Part shown: one piece after another, positions 11,506-21,653 of the stretch
How positions within the stretch are numbered: position 1 is the first letter of the stretch
Layout: each line of letters starts with the position of its first letter
IMG/VR virus record: IMGVR_UViG_3300032322_002582
Span: 1-52,801 of that record
DNA from: a virus
Direction: 5' to 3' (one strand)
DNA: 52,801 nt
Program-made: the position numbers and the translations under genes
Notes under the pieces: model-generated
Told to the model about the DNA's origin: nothing
Seen by the model: the letters and a program-made list of their open reading frames with translations, nothing else
Databases searched by the model: none

Positions 11506-12173
11506 GTTTTATACTTGAAAAAATTTCTGGGTTAGATTTTGATCTTGAGTCTGAAACGACCGAGAGCGGAAGAGTTTATATTACTCCGGAAGGCAATCGA
11601 TATCCATCTATAACAACAGTTTTATCCGCAACAGATTCGAAAGAAGGATTGATTGCATGGAGACAACGTGTTGGAGAAGAGGAAGCCAATAAAATTATGG
11701 GACGCTCCGCACGACGAGGAACAGAACTGCATTTGATATGTGAGAAATATCTTTTGAATGAGATGTCACCGATTAAGTTGAAGATGATGATGCCTCATGT
11801 CAAGGAATTATTCTATAAAATTAAACCATTTATTGATACCTCACTGAATAAAGTATATGCTTTAGAGCAGGTACTTTATTCAAATAAAATGAAAATAGCA
11901 GGTAGAACTGATTGCATTTGTGAGTGGAATGGTGTATTATCTATCTTAGATTTCAAGAACTCGATTAAAATGAAGAGAGAAGAATATATACAAGATTATT
12001 TTTTACAATGTACCGCATACTCTTTGATGTTTGAAGAACTTGTGTCTATTCCAGTGAAACAAATTGTTATATTGGTGGGAGTTGAACAAGGAAATGGACA
12101 AATATTCATTAAGCAAAAAAGCAATTATGTTGAGACTTTGCAAAACAGAATAAATAGTTATATGATCGTTTGA
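11502..12173 (+). CDS. PD-(D/E)XK exonuclease (RecB/MGME1-like)
   Basis: 223 residues. The metal site is E122 in ALEQVLYS, D137 in AGRTDCICEWNG and D150-x-K152 in SILDFKNSIK, followed by a Gln/Tyr motif (YIQDYFLQCTAYSLM), the usual order for Cas4/RecB/MGME1-type nucleases. The N-terminal part holds RYPSITTVLSAT and the helix GRSARRGTELH, both typical of phage members. It probably processes DNA ends in replication or recombination. The 3' end runs up to the acceptor part of the tmRNA and may share bases with it. Confidence 0.85.
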   Translation: MSFILEKISGLDFDLESETTESGRVYITPEGNRYPSITTVLSATDSKEGLIAWRQRVGEEEANKIMGRSARRGTELHLICEKYLLNEMSPIKLKMMMPHVKELFYKIKPFIDTSLNKVYALEQVLYSNKMKIAGRTDCICEWNGVLSILDFKNSIKMKREEYIQDYFLQCTAYSLMFEELVSIPVKQIVILVGVEQGNGQIFIKQKSNYVETLQNRINSYMIV

Positions 12174-12225
12174 AGTTGACTGAAAGGTGTTTCGGACGGC
12201 GGTTCGATTCCGCCCAGGTCCACCA

Positions 12226-12295
12226 GAAGTATATTAGCCCGATAAGACACTCTAACGTCTGAAGTGGGAAAACTGTGTCCTAATATATTTCTGAT
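12226..12295 (+). other. tmRNA intervening segment (predicted to be removed)
   Basis: The 70 bases between the acceptor and coding pieces fold back. Bases 12224-12237 pair with 12280-12293 over 14 positions (one G-U), in line with the acceptor stem, and GACAC/GTGTC (12246-12250, 12275-12279) extends the loop helix. In bacteria with permuted tmRNA the matching segment is cut out to give two RNAs. Confidence 0.75.
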
Positions 12296-12381
12296 GGGCC
12301 TGACCTGGTTTCGACGGGGCAATAAGTAAGAAGATGGACGATTCGACACAGATAGTCGTTAAAAGTAAAAAAAACGTAAAT

Positions 12382-12420
12382 GCAAACGAAAGCGTCTTTG
12401 ACGTAGCATTGGCTGCCTAA
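12382..12420 (+). other. tmRNA proteolysis-tag reading frame
   Basis: Codons GCA AAC GAA AGC GTC TTT GAC GTA GCA TTG GCT GCC TAA give ANESVFDVALAA. The start AN-E and the hydrophobic end ALAA fit known tags read by ClpXP and ClpAP. The resume codon GCA follows an A-rich stretch and CGTAAAT, as is usual. Confidence 0.9.
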
Positions 12421-12486
12421 ACACAGCCTAGGGTTTCGGTGGGTTTCCTCGTAACAGAATAACCCACCATTCAAAGGAGATCATTG

Positions 12487-13017
12487 ATGCATTTTATGAA
12501 ACTTGTTTTCATAGGCATTCTTGGATACTATTTCGCGCAACACTTTCATATACTAGTCGATCAAAAATTTGAAGAGGTTAAAGAGAGTAAGCATCCGCCA
12601 TATGTCACAATGGCTCAACGCGAAAAAGAACTTGACTGTCTAACGAAAAACATATATTATGAAGCAGGAACAGAACCTTTCGAAGGCAAAGTAGCTGTTG
12701 CTCAAGTAACCATCAATAGAACTAAATCAGGTAAATTTCCAAAAGATATTTGTGCAGTTGTATATGAACGAAATTTAGTGTACAATAACCTTATCTGTCA
12801 GTTTAGTTGGTACTGTGATTCAAAAGCGAAAGTGAGGCCCATCCATGCAGCAACCTATAAAGAATCCGAGGCTGTGGCTAAAAAGGTACTTCTCGAAGGA
12901 TTCAAACTTGACATTATCAAAGAGGACACATTATACTATCATGCAGACTACATCAACCCAGGATGGAAAAGACAAAGAGTTGCCAAAATTGGAAAACACA
13001 TCTTCTACAAAGGCTGA
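12487..13017 (+). CDS. SleB-type cell wall hydrolase (endolysin)
   Basis: 176 residues from the ATG at 12487, with AAGGAGA six bases before it; a TTG at 12484 is less likely. Residues 5-20 form a hydrophobic N-terminal segment (LVFIGILGYYFAQ), a signal anchor or signal-arrest type. Residues about 48-176 are the Hydrolase_2/SleB domain, with the catalytic-type NIYYEAGTEPFEGKVAVAQV and CQFSWYCD. The family cleaves peptidoglycan glycan strands. With the membrane gene that follows it probably forms the lysis pair. The anchor suggests Sec export rather than passage through a holin hole. It starts right after the tmRNA and shares its upstream region. Confidence 0.88.
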   Translation: MHFMKLVFIGILGYYFAQHFHILVDQKFEEVKESKHPPYVTMAQREKELDCLTKNIYYEAGTEPFEGKVAVAQVTINRTKSGKFPKDICAVVYERNLVYNNLICQFSWYCDSKAKVRPIHAATYKESEAVAKKVLLEGFKLDIIKEDTLYYHADYINPGWKRQRVAKIGKHIFYKG

Positions 13018-17062: not shown

Positions 17063-19360
17063 CTATCTCGTAGTTCCTGGAAATGATAAATTGAAAAATA
17101 ATTCAACAGCATCCGGATTGCCCACTTGCGGTGTTGATGGTTTTGGTGCTGATGTTTGTTGTACCACTTGAGATTGAGGAACAGGAATAGTGACAACGGT
17201 AGGTTCAGTTTGAACACTAACACTTCTAGTTGCTGTTGATAAATCTGTACTTTGTTTAGTTAACATAAGTCCTGGTATTTTCTGTAAGTTATCTATTCTT
17301 TTTTGCATAGCTTCATCTGATTTATCAGTTGGTCTAGACATTCTAAGACCGAAATATCGTGTTGCTTTTTCCACATCTGTTATTGATTTGAAGATTTCAT
17401 CATCACGAGGACTCTTCTTCATCACCTTTAACATTGCATCAATATTTTTTTCGGGATCCAATAAATCCCGCACACTAAATTCAGGATGAGCTTTTCTATT
17501 GATTTGAAATAGACCGTAGCTCTCTTCTCCTGGAGCACGACTTTTTATTAAAGGATTTAATCCTGATTCTTGTATTGCATTTGCTACAGCCGCTTGAGCT
17601 TGAGCTTCTGAATAACCTGCAAGCAAAAATTTAGATCTTATCAAATCTATCATAGCTTTTGAGCTATGATCAACTCTGGTGGGGCTTAAGCCTCTAGCCG
17701 ATGATGTTGCTTGTGTAGTTGAATCTGTTGTTAATCCTCTTTTTCTTAAAGATTCTTCTATGATTGCATTATAGTTTTCATTTCCAGGTAGAGCAAAATT
17801 TTTGCCTGTCATTCTCATCGATTCTATTTTTTCGAATCTTGCATTTCTTTCTATCATCAATTCTTCTAATTTTGCTGTGGCTTGAACAATGTCTTTATCT
17901 GCCGCTTCGCTAACTATTTTAGGAATAGCACCTCTTCTTCCATATTTCTTTATTTCTTCATTTGCACCTTCTATTTTCGATCTCTGTTCTGCAATATCTT
18001 TGTCTATATCTTCTTCCGTTCTCGTTTGAGTAATTTTTCCCATAATATAACCAGCAGCAGCACCCGCCAATCCTCCTAATGCGGCACCTTTTATTCCGAA
18101 CAAACTTCCGACACTTGCTCCTATAGAAGCACCTAATGTCAACAACAATTCTGGTTTATATTGGTTTATAAATTCTTTAAAATGAAAAGAAAATATTTCA
18201 CCCAATTTACCAAAATTAGTAGCTAAAATTTTGAAAGCCGATTCTGTATATGCTAAAGTAAATTCTGTTCCCCTCTTAATTGTGTCTTTTAGATAATTAA
18301 AATCGTCACCAAATTTTTGATCAATCCAGTCATATATGTCTGTAAATTTTTTTGTATTAAATATATTGTTTAAATTTTCTGCTAGTTGTCTCAGAATAGG
18401 TTCTCCACTTTCTAAATTTATACCTAAAACTCCAGCAATACCTTTTTTGACGGACTCATAAATTCCTTTGAAGTCGATGTCTTCGCTCATTTTTTTAATT
18501 GCGTATGCGGAAGCAGCTATTCCCACTATTCCCAAAAGTGGAGATATTGCTATTATGCTACCTAATGTTCTAAAAATAACAGATCCTACTGATCCTCCAA
18601 TTCCAGACATTCCGGCTATGATACCACCCAAAAAAGATGATGAGCTAGATTGTTTTTGTGGAGAAGTTGATTGAGATGGTGTGTCTCTTTTTGTAATAAT
18701 ACTTCTCGCGATGACACTTTCATTCGCTGTATTTCTAACGTTTCTTTTTGTCGAATCTGTTTTTGTTGTTTCTCTTCTATCAGCCATTCTCTTAAATAGA
18801 GAAGATATATTTGACAAGATGGAGTTTTGTCTTTTCACCATCAAGTTCATATTGAATGCACTTGTTTTAGGATCATCTAATTGTTTTACTGGCGTTTTTT
18901 CTTTCGAATACATTTGATTAAATGTATCATTTCTTTGTGAGGAATTTATCCAAAGAGCATCTGCTGCTTTCGCCGACTTGCCGGTAACTTTTTTTGTTAA
19001 TGATGTTATGTTTTGGCGAGTTATATTCATATCTCGCGCCATCATGTTCATATTCAAAGTATTCTTGGCTACGACTTTTAATAAAGCCTCTTGTCTCTCA
19101 TTAGATTGTTGTAATGAAGTTAATTCTACCGATGGCGTATCAGATAGTCCTGAAACTTTAGCGCCAGTTTTTTTTATCGGTGAATATCCTTTTCCAAAAA
19201 TTTTCTGACCAGTCGAACGAATGAATCCTTGTCCACTAAAAAGTAGATTTCTTATATCCATTCGTTCAACAAGTCCTTTTCCAGCTGCCGCTCCCAAAGC
19301 GGCTAAAGCGCCCTTGTTTTTTAGTTCTTGGCGATATATGGTAGAAAATTTAGTTGCCAT
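17063..19360 (-). CDS. Tail tape measure protein with C-terminal tail lysozyme domain
   Basis: 765 residues. Residues 1-220 are basic and helical. Two Gly/Ala hydrophobic blocks follow (about 245-310: SFLGGIIAGMSGIGGSVGSV; about 405-445: LLTLGASIGASVGSLFG and on), typical of tape measures that insert into the host membrane. Long helices follow to about 540. About 575-690 is a soluble lytic/lysozyme fold: AQAAVANAIQESGLNPLIKS with the likely catalytic Glu in QESG, then GEESYGLFQINRKAH. The position after a gp26/gp51-type pair matches T4 gp29 (590), though T4 has its lysozyme in gp5. It is the last gene of the leftward unit, with its ATG on the stop of the gene before. Confidence 0.88.
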   Translation of the reverse strand: MATKFSTIYRQELKNKGALAALGAAAGKGLVERMDIRNLLFSGQGFIRSTGQKIFGKGYSPIKKTGAKVSGLSDTPSVELTSLQQSNERQEALLKVVAKNTLNMNMMARDMNITRQNITSLTKKVTGKSAKAADALWINSSQRNDTFNQMYSKEKTPVKQLDDPKTSAFNMNLMVKRQNSILSNISSLFKRMADRRETTKTDSTKRNVRNTANESVIARSIITKRDTPSQSTSPQKQSSSSSFLGGIIAGMSGIGGSVGSVIFRTLGSIIAISPLLGIVGIAASAYAIKKMSEDIDFKGIYESVKKGIAGVLGINLESGEPILRQLAENLNNIFNTKKFTDIYDWIDQKFGDDFNYLKDTIKRGTEFTLAYTESAFKILATNFGKLGEIFSFHFKEFINQYKPELLLTLGASIGASVGSLFGIKGAALGGLAGAAAGYIMGKITQTRTEEDIDKDIAEQRSKIEGANEEIKKYGRRGAIPKIVSEAADKDIVQATAKLEELMIERNARFEKIESMRMTGKNFALPGNENYNAIIEESLRKRGLTTDSTTQATSSARGLSPTRVDHSSKAMIDLIRSKFLLAGYSEAQAQAAVANAIQESGLNPLIKSRAPGEESYGLFQINRKAHPEFSVRDLLDPEKNIDAMLKVMKKSPRDDEIFKSITDVEKATRYFGLRMSRPTDKSDEAMQKRIDNLQKIPGLMLTKQSTDLSTATRSVSVQTEPTVVTIPVPQSQVVQQTSAPKPSTPQVGNPDAVELFFNLSFPGTTR

Positions 19361-19503
19361 TATTGTTTTCTTCTTGCTAGTTGTTGTTGTCTAATCTTCT
19401 CATTTTCTTCATCAATATACTTGAGAAGTAGCGTAACGTATATACTTCTTTCCCAAGGCATCATATTGTCCAACTCTGTCAAACTGTATTTGTGATGTTG
19501 CAT
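19360..19503 (-). CDS. gp51: gp51-like hub assembly protein / tail-chaperone extension
   Basis: The frame from the ATG at 19503 gives 47 residues, MQHHKYSLTELDNMMPWERS followed by a charged helix, like the short gp51 proteins of aquatic T4-like phages. The His-His-x-Tyr-Ser and Glu-Leu-x-x-Met-x-x-Trp-Glu pattern also occurs in frameshifted tail assembly chaperones. No ribosome site precedes the ATG. The frame stays open upstream through the gp26 stop and into gp26, with protein-like sequence (FRYESLGNHYQTNFAL). The likely product is therefore a gp26-gp51 fusion made by a -1 shift (310 residues). The stop TAA overlaps the tape-measure ATG. Confidence 0.7.
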   Translation of the reverse strand: MQHHKYSLTELDNMMPWERSIYVTLLLKYIDEENEKIRQQQLARRKQ

Positions 19504-19553
19504 AAGAGCGAAATTTGTTTGATAGTGATTGCCCAGTGATTCATAACGAAAAA

Positions 19554-19580
19554 TTATCCGAAAAAACTTTGGATTCCTTC
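19554..19580 (-). other. Predicted programmed -1 frameshift signal
   Basis: On the minus strand the last gp26 codons read CAA AGT TTT TTC GGA TAA. T-TTT-TTC (19566-19560) is a perfect X-XXY-YYZ slippery heptamer in the gp26 frame, two codons before its stop. An internal AAGGAA (19579-19574) lies 7 bases before it, where such sites stimulate bacterial -1 shifts. After the shift the frame runs CGG ATA ATT and stays open to 19360. Confidence 0.7.
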
Positions 19581-20291
19581 TAGTATCAGATATTCCTCGT
19601 AGTTACACTTCGGACATTTAAATGCAATTTCCTTTTTCAATTTGGGTAACGTTTCGAAAAAGTTTTGTATTTTTAAAAATTGTTCTCTTGTTAGACTGTC
19701 GATGAAATCCACCAATTCGTGTTCTTGAACATCTTTTGCATAAAAAATTGACTCTTCATCATATATGTAATCAATAGAATTGATAATAGTTTTTGCTACT
19801 ACATCAGCAGCAGAAACTTTTTGATTATTTTTTGTTAGTTCTTCTATTCCTTTGTATGTTGGATATTTCATTACGATGCCCAACTTTGGAGTCAATTCTA
19901 TTTTTTCAGTCACATTTTTTAAGTCTGGTTCAACTTCGAGAGCATTAAAACTTAATTTTACTAGATTGTCACATTTCTTTTTTTCGTTTTCAACTTCAAC
20001 ATCATTATTGCATCGATATTGCAATTCGACCATCTCGCTAACGGATCTTGCTCTCAAGTGCATAAAAAGAAATTCGAAATCGACTATCGGTAAATCATCG
20101 ATATCGATTTTACTCACTATACAGTTATTTAAAATTTGTTTAATCGCTAGTAAGATAGAATCTTCATTATCTGATTCCATTGCCATCAAAAGAATTTTTT
20201 CTTCCTTGACAAGAAATGGTCTAAACTTAATCTTCTTTTTACTGAGAGGTAAAGTTAATTCATATAGAGGCACATCAATTTTGGGTAACAT
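19554..20291 (-). CDS. gp26: gp26-like baseplate hub / tail assembly chaperone protein
   Basis: 245 residues (T4 gp26 208). The N-terminal half is close to the T4 baseplate family: PLYELTLPLSKKKIKFRPFL, KEEKILLMAMES, IKQILNNC, and FLFMHLRARSVSE. Two cysteine pairs (CNNDVEV-x-KKC and CPKCNYEE) may bind zinc. In T4 gp26 is needed for the baseplate hub; by position before the tape measure it is the counterpart of tail assembly chaperones. Good ribosome site GGAGA. The end carries a slippery heptamer that would fuse it to the gp51-like frame. Confidence 0.88.
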   Translation of the reverse strand: MLPKIDVPLYELTLPLSKKKIKFRPFLVKEEKILLMAMESDNEDSILLAIKQILNNCIVSKIDIDDLPIVDFEFLFMHLRARSVSEMVELQYRCNNDVEVENEKKKCDNLVKLSFNALEVEPDLKNVTEKIELTPKLGIVMKYPTYKGIEELTKNNQKVSAADVVAKTIINSIDYIYDEESIFYAKDVQEHELVDFIDSLTREQFLKIQNFFETLPKLKKEIAFKCPKCNYEEYLILEGIQSFFG

Positions 20292-20301
20292 AAATTCTCC
20301 A

Positions 20302-21072
20302 TTAAAAAATCTGTTTAATCTCGGCCACGGTTCCTTTTACGATATTCTGCAATGCTTTTCCTGTGGGTGTGCCTGCGATTCCAGCACCAACAAGTGCTGC
20401 TCCTATTGCACCAACATCATAAGCACCTTTGTATATCGTTTTAAATTTTTGATATGCGAATTGGACAGTAAGTCTATGAAATCCTTCTTCCGACCAACTT
20501 AAAGTTTGTGCATTTATAGATTTAGGAAAAGCATCTATCAAGTCAACTGCATATATTTGTTTAAAGAAATCGTTGTATTGTACTATTTTTATATCCGTTA
20601 GAAATCTAGTTTTTTCACCTTTTGCGAATCTTGTATTATTAGTATCTGTTGGAACTATTGCTTCCATCCATCTATCGAATAATTTTCTTTCGTAGAAATC
20701 GTTTGTACAAATAAAGGTAAAAGAAATATCTCCATAAACTGCTTGTCTTGGAACTTGAAAAGATGGACCGTATATTTGAACTTCATCTGTTTGTAAAGAT
20801 TTACCTGGCAATTCCGTAGATTCACATTGAAGTGCTAGATAACGACTGATGACAGGATCATAATTTCTGGATCCGTCTTCTGTTCCTATTGCTCTGGCAG
20901 TAATGTCCGAAAAAACTGAATTGGGTAAATTCAAAAGTCTTTCGATAACGCTTGTCGAAACAAATTCACTTATGTATCGAGGAATCGGCATAATAACCTG
21001 AAAACGATTAGGTTTAGCCGGACCATCTTTAGAATTTATATTGGATAAGAATAATTGAGGTAGGAATGCCAT
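20302..21072 (-). CDS. gp54: gp54-like baseplate tail-tube initiator
   Basis: 256 residues from the ATG at 21072 (AAGGAA before it; an in-frame ATG at 21159 reads in the shadow of the gene before). The chain has the gp19 tail-tube pattern: PNRFQVIMPIP, the central CESTELPGKSLQTDEVQIYG and ISFTFICTNDFYERKLFDRW, and DIKIVQYN near the tube strand. Tube-related proteins of this size at the baseplate are gp54 (T4 320), which starts tube growth on gp48. The C-terminal Gly/Ala segment (AIGAALVGAGIAGTP) is extra. The start overlaps the previous stop (TAATG). Confidence 0.75.
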   Translation of the reverse strand: MAFLPQLFLSNINSKDGPAKPNRFQVIMPIPRYISEFVSTSVIERLLNLPNSVFSDITARAIGTEDGSRNYDPVISRYLALQCESTELPGKSLQTDEVQIYGPSFQVPRQAVYGDISFTFICTNDFYERKLFDRWMEAIVPTDTNNTRFAKGEKTRFLTDIKIVQYNDFFKQIYAVDLIDAFPKSINAQTLSWSEEGFHRLTVQFAYQKFKTIYKGAYDVGAIGAALVGAGIAGTPTGKALQNIVKGTVAEIKQIF

Positions 21073-21653
21073 TAGAATTTTTTCCTTGAGTCTGCCCAGA
21101 CTTTGCTGGTACTCGCTTTTTGAAACTGTTCGACAGGAAGTAGTGCAGCAATGTCCCATTCGTTTGCGTGTATTTCGACAAATTTGGATTCAACATGACT
21201 CGATAGATAACGCTTCAAACATGGTGTTGCCTCATAAGCCTGCGAAAAAGCAGAAAGAGCTTGATAATTTAATCTAAGTTTTGTGCTTTGATCATAAGCA
21301 TGATTCGATGCAAAACTACTTAATTTGTCTAAAAGTATTATCCTATGTTTAGGATGAATATAATGTAAATTTAGACCTAAGAATCCGTCATTGTAAAGTT
21401 GAATGGGTATAACTAATGGAAATCTATCGTAGTATGGTAATTTATCTTTTGTTTTTGGATCATAGTAAAAAAAGTACATGTGTCCAATAATATTGGTTAT
21501 AGTTTTTCTTTCATTTCCTCCAGTCATAATCTTTCTTGCTGTAGGATTTAATTCTGGTATTTTTGAGCGAAGCCAATCTCTAGCTTGCTTGGAGCGAGCA
21601 TTATATCCAGTTTTTGACAACTGTTGATTTATTCTGTCCATTAGATGTGCCAT
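21072..21653 (-). CDS. Conserved virion assembly protein of T4-like phages, unnamed
   Basis: 193 residues, soluble. Distinct blocks are FFYYDPKTKDKLPYYDRFPL, DGFLGLNLHYIHPKHRI, and CLKRYLSSHVESKFVEI. I recall the same blocks in aquatic T4-like phages beside gp4 and gp54, but cannot assign a T4 number; T4 has gp2 next to gp4. It probably acts in baseplate or head completion. No ribosome site is seen; AATAAATA lies so that a late transcript would begin at the ATG (see findings). A second ATG is at residue 5. Confidence 0.75.
   Translation of the reverse strand: MAHLMDRINQQLSKTGYNARSKQARDWLRSKIPELNPTARKIMTGGNERKTITNIIGHMYFFYYDPKTKDKLPYYDRFPLVIPIQLYNDGFLGLNLHYIHPKHRIILLDKLSSFASNHAYDQSTKLRLNYQALSAFSQAYEATPCLKRYLSSHVESKFVEIHANEWDIAALLPVEQFQKASTSKVWADSRKKF

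What the first reader, a model, noticed from the sequence alone, without database searches (positions are those of the whole stretch)
19360..20291. Predicted -1 programmed frameshift fusing gp26 to gp51
The heptamer T-TTT-TTC sits in the gp26 frame two codons before its stop, with an internal AAGGAA 7 bases upstream. The -1 frame is open from well inside gp26 through the stop to the end of the gp51-like frame. That frame has no ribosome site of its own and has protein-like sequence upstream of its first ATG. Gene order (short gene, overlapping extension, tape measure) is exactly that of G/GT-type tail assembly chaperones, where such a shift is established. I know of no description for T4 gp26/gp51. 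It would explain gp51 as a chaperone extension.
Basis: partly seen in the sequence, partly recalled or inferred. Interest (0 to 1): 0.85.

Follow-up and report, generated by a model that had tools for sequence, protein, structure and literature searches.

The report
Frameshift-made tail chaperone in T4-like phage
This T4-like phage from a metagenome almost certainly makes two versions of its tail-building helper protein by having some ribosomes slip back one base just before the stop codon; this trick is already known for phage tail chaperones, and here it explains why the 'gp51' of many T4-like phages looks like a truncated gene.

Summary
The gp26-like ORF (19554-20291, minus strand) ends AGT-TTT-TTC-GGA-TAA, with T_TTT_TTC in frame at 19560-19566. 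The -1 frame stays open to 19360 and encodes the gp51 family. In 147 distinct related junctions (marine and other T4-like phages, isolates included), 147 carry TTTTTT[C/T/G] in the gp26 frame 7-13 nt before the stop. All have the open -1 frame, and none has a Shine-Dalgarno-preceded ATG for a separate gp51. The wobble bases of the two codons at the slip never change on the tree, against about 13 changes expected per column. The extension upstream of its first ATG is under purifying selection. The conceptual fusion aligns end to end with the 249-aa T4-type gp51, and the predicted gp26 fold matches tail assembly chaperones (HK97 gp13, YqbN). Mechanism: -1 programmed frameshifting makes a short (G-like) and a long (GT-like) chaperone for the tape measure protein. 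Straboviridae (T4) instead carry two genes. This is not new in kind: Vladimirov et al. 2022 (full text not held) identified T4-like chaperone genes, and later papers cite poly-T slippery sites and the two-gene T4 arrangement. The frameshift itself remains inferred from sequence.

The parts
19554..20291 (-). gp26-like ORF: short (G-like) tail assembly chaperone, 245 aa, ends ...SFFG*
   Evidence: PF12322 E 5.5e-56, phrog_150 E 1.4e-60; AF2 model pLDDT 87.8 matching tail assembly chaperones 3fgx, 3klu, 2ob9
19574..19579 (-). AAGGAA, Shine-Dalgarno-like element 7 nt upstream of the heptamer (possible stimulator)
   Evidence: read directly; SD-like motif 5-19 nt upstream in 138 of 147 junctions, partly explained by a conserved Glu-Gly
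19560..19566 (-). slippery heptamer T_TTT_TTC in the gp26 frame
   Evidence: TTTTTT[C/T/G] conserved in phase in 147/147 distinct junctions; no wobble change on the tree at the two codons that begin it
19554..19556 (-). TAA stop of the short form
19360..19566 (-). -1 frame from the slip site to its TAA: gp51-like extension RIIFRYESLGNHYQTNFALMQHHKYSLTELDNMMPWERSIYV... (66 new residues; long form 310 aa)
   Evidence: phrog_634 E 9.8e-27 and phrog_150 tail E 2.3e-07; pN/pS 0.25 upstream of the first ATG and no stop in 56/56; conceptual fusion vs T4-type gp51 hhalign prob 99.0, E 3.2e-18
19360..19503 (-). 47-codon ATG ORF inside the extension; the likely gene-finder call for 'gp51', probably not a real start
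   Evidence: no SD before it, and in relatives this ATG is sometimes replaced
17063..19360 (-). tape measure-like protein with C-terminal lysozyme domain; its ATG overlaps the extension stop (TAATG)
   Evidence: phrog_9570 tape measure E 8.2e-06, PF18013 phage tail lysozyme E 1e-10, start/stop overlap
20302..21159 (-). tail tube-like protein upstream
   Evidence: phrog_45 tail tube E 2.2e-33

Best explanation
The gp26/gp51-like locus is one tail assembly chaperone gene with a -1 programmed ribosomal frameshift. Most ribosomes end at the TAA after ...SFFG and make the short (G-like) form. A minority slip back one base on T_TTT_TTC (tRNA-Phe in both the P and A sites re-pairs perfectly or at the wobble base) and read on in the -1 frame, making a 310-aa long (GT-like) form whose 66-residue tail is the gp51 family. 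Shown: sequence, phase, conservation, coding constraint, homology of the fusion to T4-type gp51 and similarity of the predicted short-form fold to tail assembly chaperones. Inferred: the shift itself, its frequency, the stimulating role of the upstream AAGGAA, and the long form's binding to the tape measure protein and tail tube subunits.
For: 147/147 distinct junctions carry TTTTTT[C/T/G] in the gp26 frame 7-13 nt before the stop and an open -1 frame, although no search pattern required it. Zero T<->C wobble changes at codons 242 and 243 in 61 relatives, against a mean of 0.21 per sequence at 39 comparable columns; the first slip-site Phe is TTT in 61/61 although TTT:TTC is 464:226 elsewhere. 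The -1 frame before the first ATG has pN/pS 0.25 and no stops in 56/56, while the other frames have stops in 56/56 and 55/56. Upstream of the slip site the -1 frame is closed in 53/56. No ATG within 70 nt after the slip site has an SD in any of 147. Natural fused homologue: T4-type gp51 is PF12322 plus the same C-terminal extension. Short form fold: only tail assembly chaperones at Z 7.2-7.6, next match 2.2. Gene order tail tube, gp26/gp51, tape measure.
Against: No protein evidence. No stable RNA structure downstream (z +0.70). The SD-like element is partly a by-product of a conserved Glu-Gly, whose wobble base is free. T4-type gp51 did not itself retrieve tail assembly chaperones by fold. 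Some relatives have an ATG close to the gp26 stop that could allow reinitiation.
Confidence: 0.93

Rival explanations
1. gp51 is a separate small gene translated from its own start (ATG at 19503, or an ATG next to the gp26 stop in other phages) by initiation or termination-reinitiation.
For: Databases annotate short gp51 genes this way. In P-SSM2, S-PM2, phiM9, RHph_Y68 and Vibrio D481 an in-frame ATG lies within 5 nt of the gp26 stop. Ackermannviridae and Vibrio K483 lack the heptamer and some have TAATG.
Against: No SD before any ATG within 70 nt in 147/147. In the window and many relatives the first ATG lies about 60 nt into conserved coding sequence under purifying selection. The heptamer is kept even where a nearby ATG exists. 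T4-type gp51 is fused at exactly this point.
Confidence: 0.04
2. RNA polymerase slippage on the T run, not ribosomal slippage, makes mRNAs with one extra U and so the fused protein.
For: A T run is present, and a few relatives have 7-8 T (L074, L077).
Against: Most runs are six T closed by C (126 of 147 end in C), which is short for transcriptional slippage (general knowledge). The phase relative to the codons is invariant, which slippage of the polymerase does not need.
Confidence: 0.02
3. The extension is a decaying remnant or a sequencing artefact and the heptamer is chance.
For: TTTTTTC is common in this AT-rich window.
Against: The arrangement recurs in 147 distinct junctions and in sequenced isolates, with purifying selection in the -1 frame.
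Confidence: 0.005

Closest known systems
Tail assembly chaperones G/GT of phage lambda and relatives (Levin et al. 1993; Xu et al. 2004)
   Same: [quoted passage not shown] predicted short-form fold resembles HK97 gp13 (2ob9, Z 7.2).
   Different: Heptamer T_TTT_TTC lies one codon or none before the stop; the short form carries an extra domain beyond the HK97-like N-terminal ~90 residues; no sequence similarity to lambda G was tested.
T4-like tail assembly chaperones gp26/gp51 (Vladimirov, Gautam and Davidson 2022, Virology 566:9-15; known here only through papers citing it)
   Same: Same protein families: PF12322, phrog_150, phrog_634. Poly-T slippery sequences in TAC-N genes of T4-like phages are cited as known (PMC12846349).
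   Different: In T4 and other Straboviridae the short form (gp26) and long fused form (gp51) are two separate, divergent genes; here one gene with a frameshift.
Vandenendeviridae and Andersonviridae tail chaperone frameshift (PMC12846349)
   Same: Conserved poly-T slippery motif (GTTTTT) at the end of TAC-N and open -1 frame to the tape measure gene.
   Different: Different myovirus families; heptamer here is TTTTTT[C/T/G].

Membership tests
G/GT-type tail assembly chaperone | in-frame slippery heptamer just before the stop of the short gene | tested here: met
   T_TTT_TTC in frame in the window; 147/147 distinct junctions carry TTTTTT[C/T/G]
G/GT-type tail assembly chaperone | -1 frame extension coding, without its own start | tested here: met
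   pN/pS 0.25 before the first ATG, open in all, no SD-preceded ATG
G/GT-type tail assembly chaperone | located between tail tube and tape measure genes | tested here: met
   phrog_45 upstream, phrog_9570 downstream
G/GT-type tail assembly chaperone | tail assembly chaperone fold | tested here: met
   AF2 model vs 3fgx Z 7.6, 3klu Z 7.5, 2ob9 Z 7.2, next match 2.2; N-terminal ~90 residues only; Z below 8 is not conclusive alone
G/GT-type tail assembly chaperone | two proteins in a fixed ratio, long form binding the tape measure protein | not testable with these tools
   needs proteomics, reporter and binding assays
T4 gp26/gp51 (PF12322, phrog_150, phrog_634) | sequence family membership of both parts | tested here: met
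T4 gp51 full-length form | N-terminal gp26-like domain followed directly by the gp51 extension | tested here: met
   conceptual fusion aligns over 241 columns through the junction, prob 99.0, E 3.2e-18
T4 (Straboviridae) two-gene arrangement | separate short and long chaperone genes | tested here: not met
   the window has one gp26 ORF directly followed by the extension in the -1 frame; separate genes in RB14, 44RR2.8t, AS-gz

The most novel reading that the evidence does not exclude
The frameshift also meters the tape measure protein: the long form's stop overlaps the tape measure start (TAATG in the window, within 2-6 nt in most relatives, without a clear SD), so only ribosomes that shifted would reach and reinitiate on the tape measure gene. 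T4's separate gp26 and gp51 genes would then be a later duplication that replaced this coupling.
Probability: 0.25. Interest if true: 0.5.

Novelty: new member of a known kind. Interest (0 to 1): 0.35.

Why it matters
It explains a recorded oddity: Sullivan et al. 2010 (PMC3037559) noted that cyanophage and marine vibriophage gp51 lack the first ~200 residues of T4 gp51. The missing part is gp26, joined by frameshifting. It means the annotated short gp51 genes of hundreds of T4-like phages are probably not genes of their own, and it supports reading T4's 'hub assembly catalyst' gp51 as a long-form tail assembly chaperone.

Tried and rejected
Downstream stimulatory RNA structure: none (z +0.70). 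Close DNA relatives in the phage collection: none. PDB sequence search for gp26 and T4-type gp51: no relative. NCBIfam: nothing useful. Fold comparison of T4-type gp51 gave no tail chaperone among the chains Foldseek ranked highest, which excludes nothing. Vladimirov et al. 2022 is not held, so its content is taken from papers that cite it. A -1 frame in Ackermannviridae and Vibrio K483 was considered as the same system and set aside, because no heptamer is present. L206 gave no junction: its gp26 frame is broken.

Full report
What is there. The window is a 52.8-kb virus record with T4-like genes. On the minus strand the order is head closure, DNA end protector, tail tube, gp26-like ORF, a short gp51-like frame, and a tape measure-like protein with a C-terminal lysozyme domain. 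The gp26-like ORF (20291..19554) belongs to PF12322 (E 5.5e-56) and phrog_150 (E 1.4e-60). It ends AGT TTT TTC GGA TAA, so T_TTT_TTC at 19566..19560 is in the X_XXY_YYZ phase. The -1 frame continues for 66 residues past the slip site to TAA at 19362..19360. These residues match phrog_634, 'baseplate hub assembly catalyst', gp51 (E 9.8e-27). The only ATG-started reading of this frame is a 47-codon ORF from 19503.

Is it more than chance? The heptamer itself is at chance frequency in this AT-rich DNA (38 seen, 38.6 expected). In-frame TTTTTTN occurs at 23 of 17,515 codon positions in window ORFs of at least 100 aa, and only this one lies within 30 nt of a stop. Conservation settles it. Four searches of viral contigs, none of which used the slip site as a pattern, plus ten isolate loci gave 147 distinct junctions. 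All 147 carry TTTTTT[C/T/G] in the gp26 frame 7-13 nt before the stop: 120 TTTTTTC at -10, 15 TTTTTTT at -7, 6 TTTTTTC at -7, 3 TTTTTTT at -10, 2 TTTTTTG at -10 and 1 TTTTTTT at -13. All 147 have the open -1 frame. L206 was left out because its gp26 frame is broken.

Constraint at the nucleotide level. Among 61 relatives below 90% nucleotide identity, the codon before the two Phe codons always ends in T, although it encodes Ser, Asn or Asp, and the first Phe is always TTT. Elsewhere in the same genes Phe is TTT 464 times and TTC 226 times. On the protein tree there are no T<->C changes at codons 242 and 243, against a mean of 0.21 changes per sequence (about 13 per column) at 39 other columns with two-fold pyrimidine-ending codons; the lowest of those has 3. 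Amino-acid conservation of the C-terminal Phe-Phe does not explain this.

The extension is coding before any start codon. In the 19 codons between the slip site and the usual first ATG, 56 relatives show codon-position differences of 0.35, 0.21 and 0.52, pN/pS 0.25 in the -1 frame, and no stop, while the other two frames have stops in 56 and 55 of 56. The 19 codons upstream of the slip site in the -1 frame contain a stop in 53 of 56. The -1 coding signal therefore begins at the slip site. No ATG within 70 nt after the slip site is preceded by GGAG, GAGG or AGGA in any of 147 junctions. An SD-like motif lies 5-19 nt upstream of the heptamer in 138 of 147, a position known to stimulate -1 shifting (general knowledge of dnaX-type sites). 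It partly reflects a conserved Glu-Gly whose wobble base is free, so its role is only plausible. No downstream RNA structure is predicted.

The fused protein exists in nature. In RB14, 44RR2.8t and AS-gz (Straboviridae) genes 26 and 51 are separate and divergently transcribed. Their 249-aa gp51 is a PF12322 domain (residues 1-201 in RB14) followed by the gp51 extension, and their gp26 is a PF12322 domain that stops where the window's short form stops. Profile comparison of T4-type gp51 with the conceptual frameshift product gives probability 99.0 and E 3.2e-18 over 241 columns, running through the junction. T4-type gp26 and gp51 thus look like the short and long forms encoded by two genes. Whether duplication replaced frameshifting or the reverse was not tested with a rooted tree.

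What the protein is. The AlphaFold2 model of the window gp26 (pLDDT 87.8, pTM 0.80) has only three clear PDB neighbours in the second-look comparison: 3fgx (Z 7.6), 3klu YqbN (Z 7.5) and 2ob9, the HK97 tail assembly chaperone (Z 7.2). All cover the N-terminal ~90 residues, and the next row has Z 2.2. That 3fgx and 3klu are prophage relatives of the HK97 chaperone is general knowledge; their titles do not say so. These Z values alone would be modest; that all clear hits come from this one family, and the gap below them, make the assignment convincing. The T4-type gp51 model did not retrieve this family.

How it most likely works. Most ribosomes stop at 19556-19554 and make the short chaperone. 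A minority shift -1 on T_TTT_TTC and make the 310-aa long form. By analogy with lambda G/GT, the short forms would coat the tape measure protein while the long form's tail recruits tail tube subunits. The frequency, the ratio and these contacts are inferred. The long form's stop overlaps the tape measure ATG (TAATG) in the window, and in most relatives the next ATG lies 2-6 nt from that stop, which would allow tape measure translation to be coupled to the shift; this is untested.

Exceptions. Ackermannviridae (L094, L097-L114) and Vibrio phage K483 lack the heptamer. Their gp51-like extension (phrog_9633, weakly phrog_634) still follows in the -1 frame, with TAATG or TAATT at the gp26 stop. 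They may use reinitiation or another route.

What is known. [quoted passage not shown] the paper is not held. A paper citing it says some T4-like phages carry one short gene and one fused long gene in place of frameshifting (PMC10885494). Another cites poly-T slippery sequences in TAC-N genes of T4-like phages as known (PMC12846349). Sullivan et al. 2010 (PMC3037559) had noted that cyanophage and marine vibriophage gp51 lack the first ~200 residues of T4 gp51; the frameshift explains that. What this work adds is the size and strictness of the conservation test and the end-to-end match of the fusion to T4-type gp51.

Noticed in passing
window 12113-12511 (+): A permuted tmRNA gene: Rfam tmRNA_permuted 135.7 bits and beta_tmRNA 110.4 bits, ARAGORN tag ANESVFDVALAA; no similar DNA in the phage collection. 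It suggests a betaproteobacterial host and a phage-borne ribosome-rescue RNA.
   Followed up: partly
L094, L097-L114, L093: Ackermannviridae and Vibrio phage K483 keep a gp51-like extension in the -1 frame after gp26 but without a heptamer; the junction reads TAATG in some and TAATT in others. How the extension is translated there is unclear.
   Followed up: partly
window 19358-19362: The stop of the -1 frame overlaps the tape measure ATG (TAATG), without a clear SD; in most relatives the next ATG is 2-6 nt from that stop.
   Followed up: partly
window 17063-19360: The tape measure-like protein carries a C-terminal tail lysozyme / transglycosylase domain (PF18013, PF01464).
   Followed up: no
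L084 2397-2729, L085 2405-2734: HTVC008M and Melnitz have an extra ~110-codon gene, with an SD-like sequence, between the gp51 extension and the tape measure gene.
   Followed up: no
L206: An HTVC008M-like contig whose gp26 frame is broken before the junction; assembly error or real defect not resolved.
   Followed up: no
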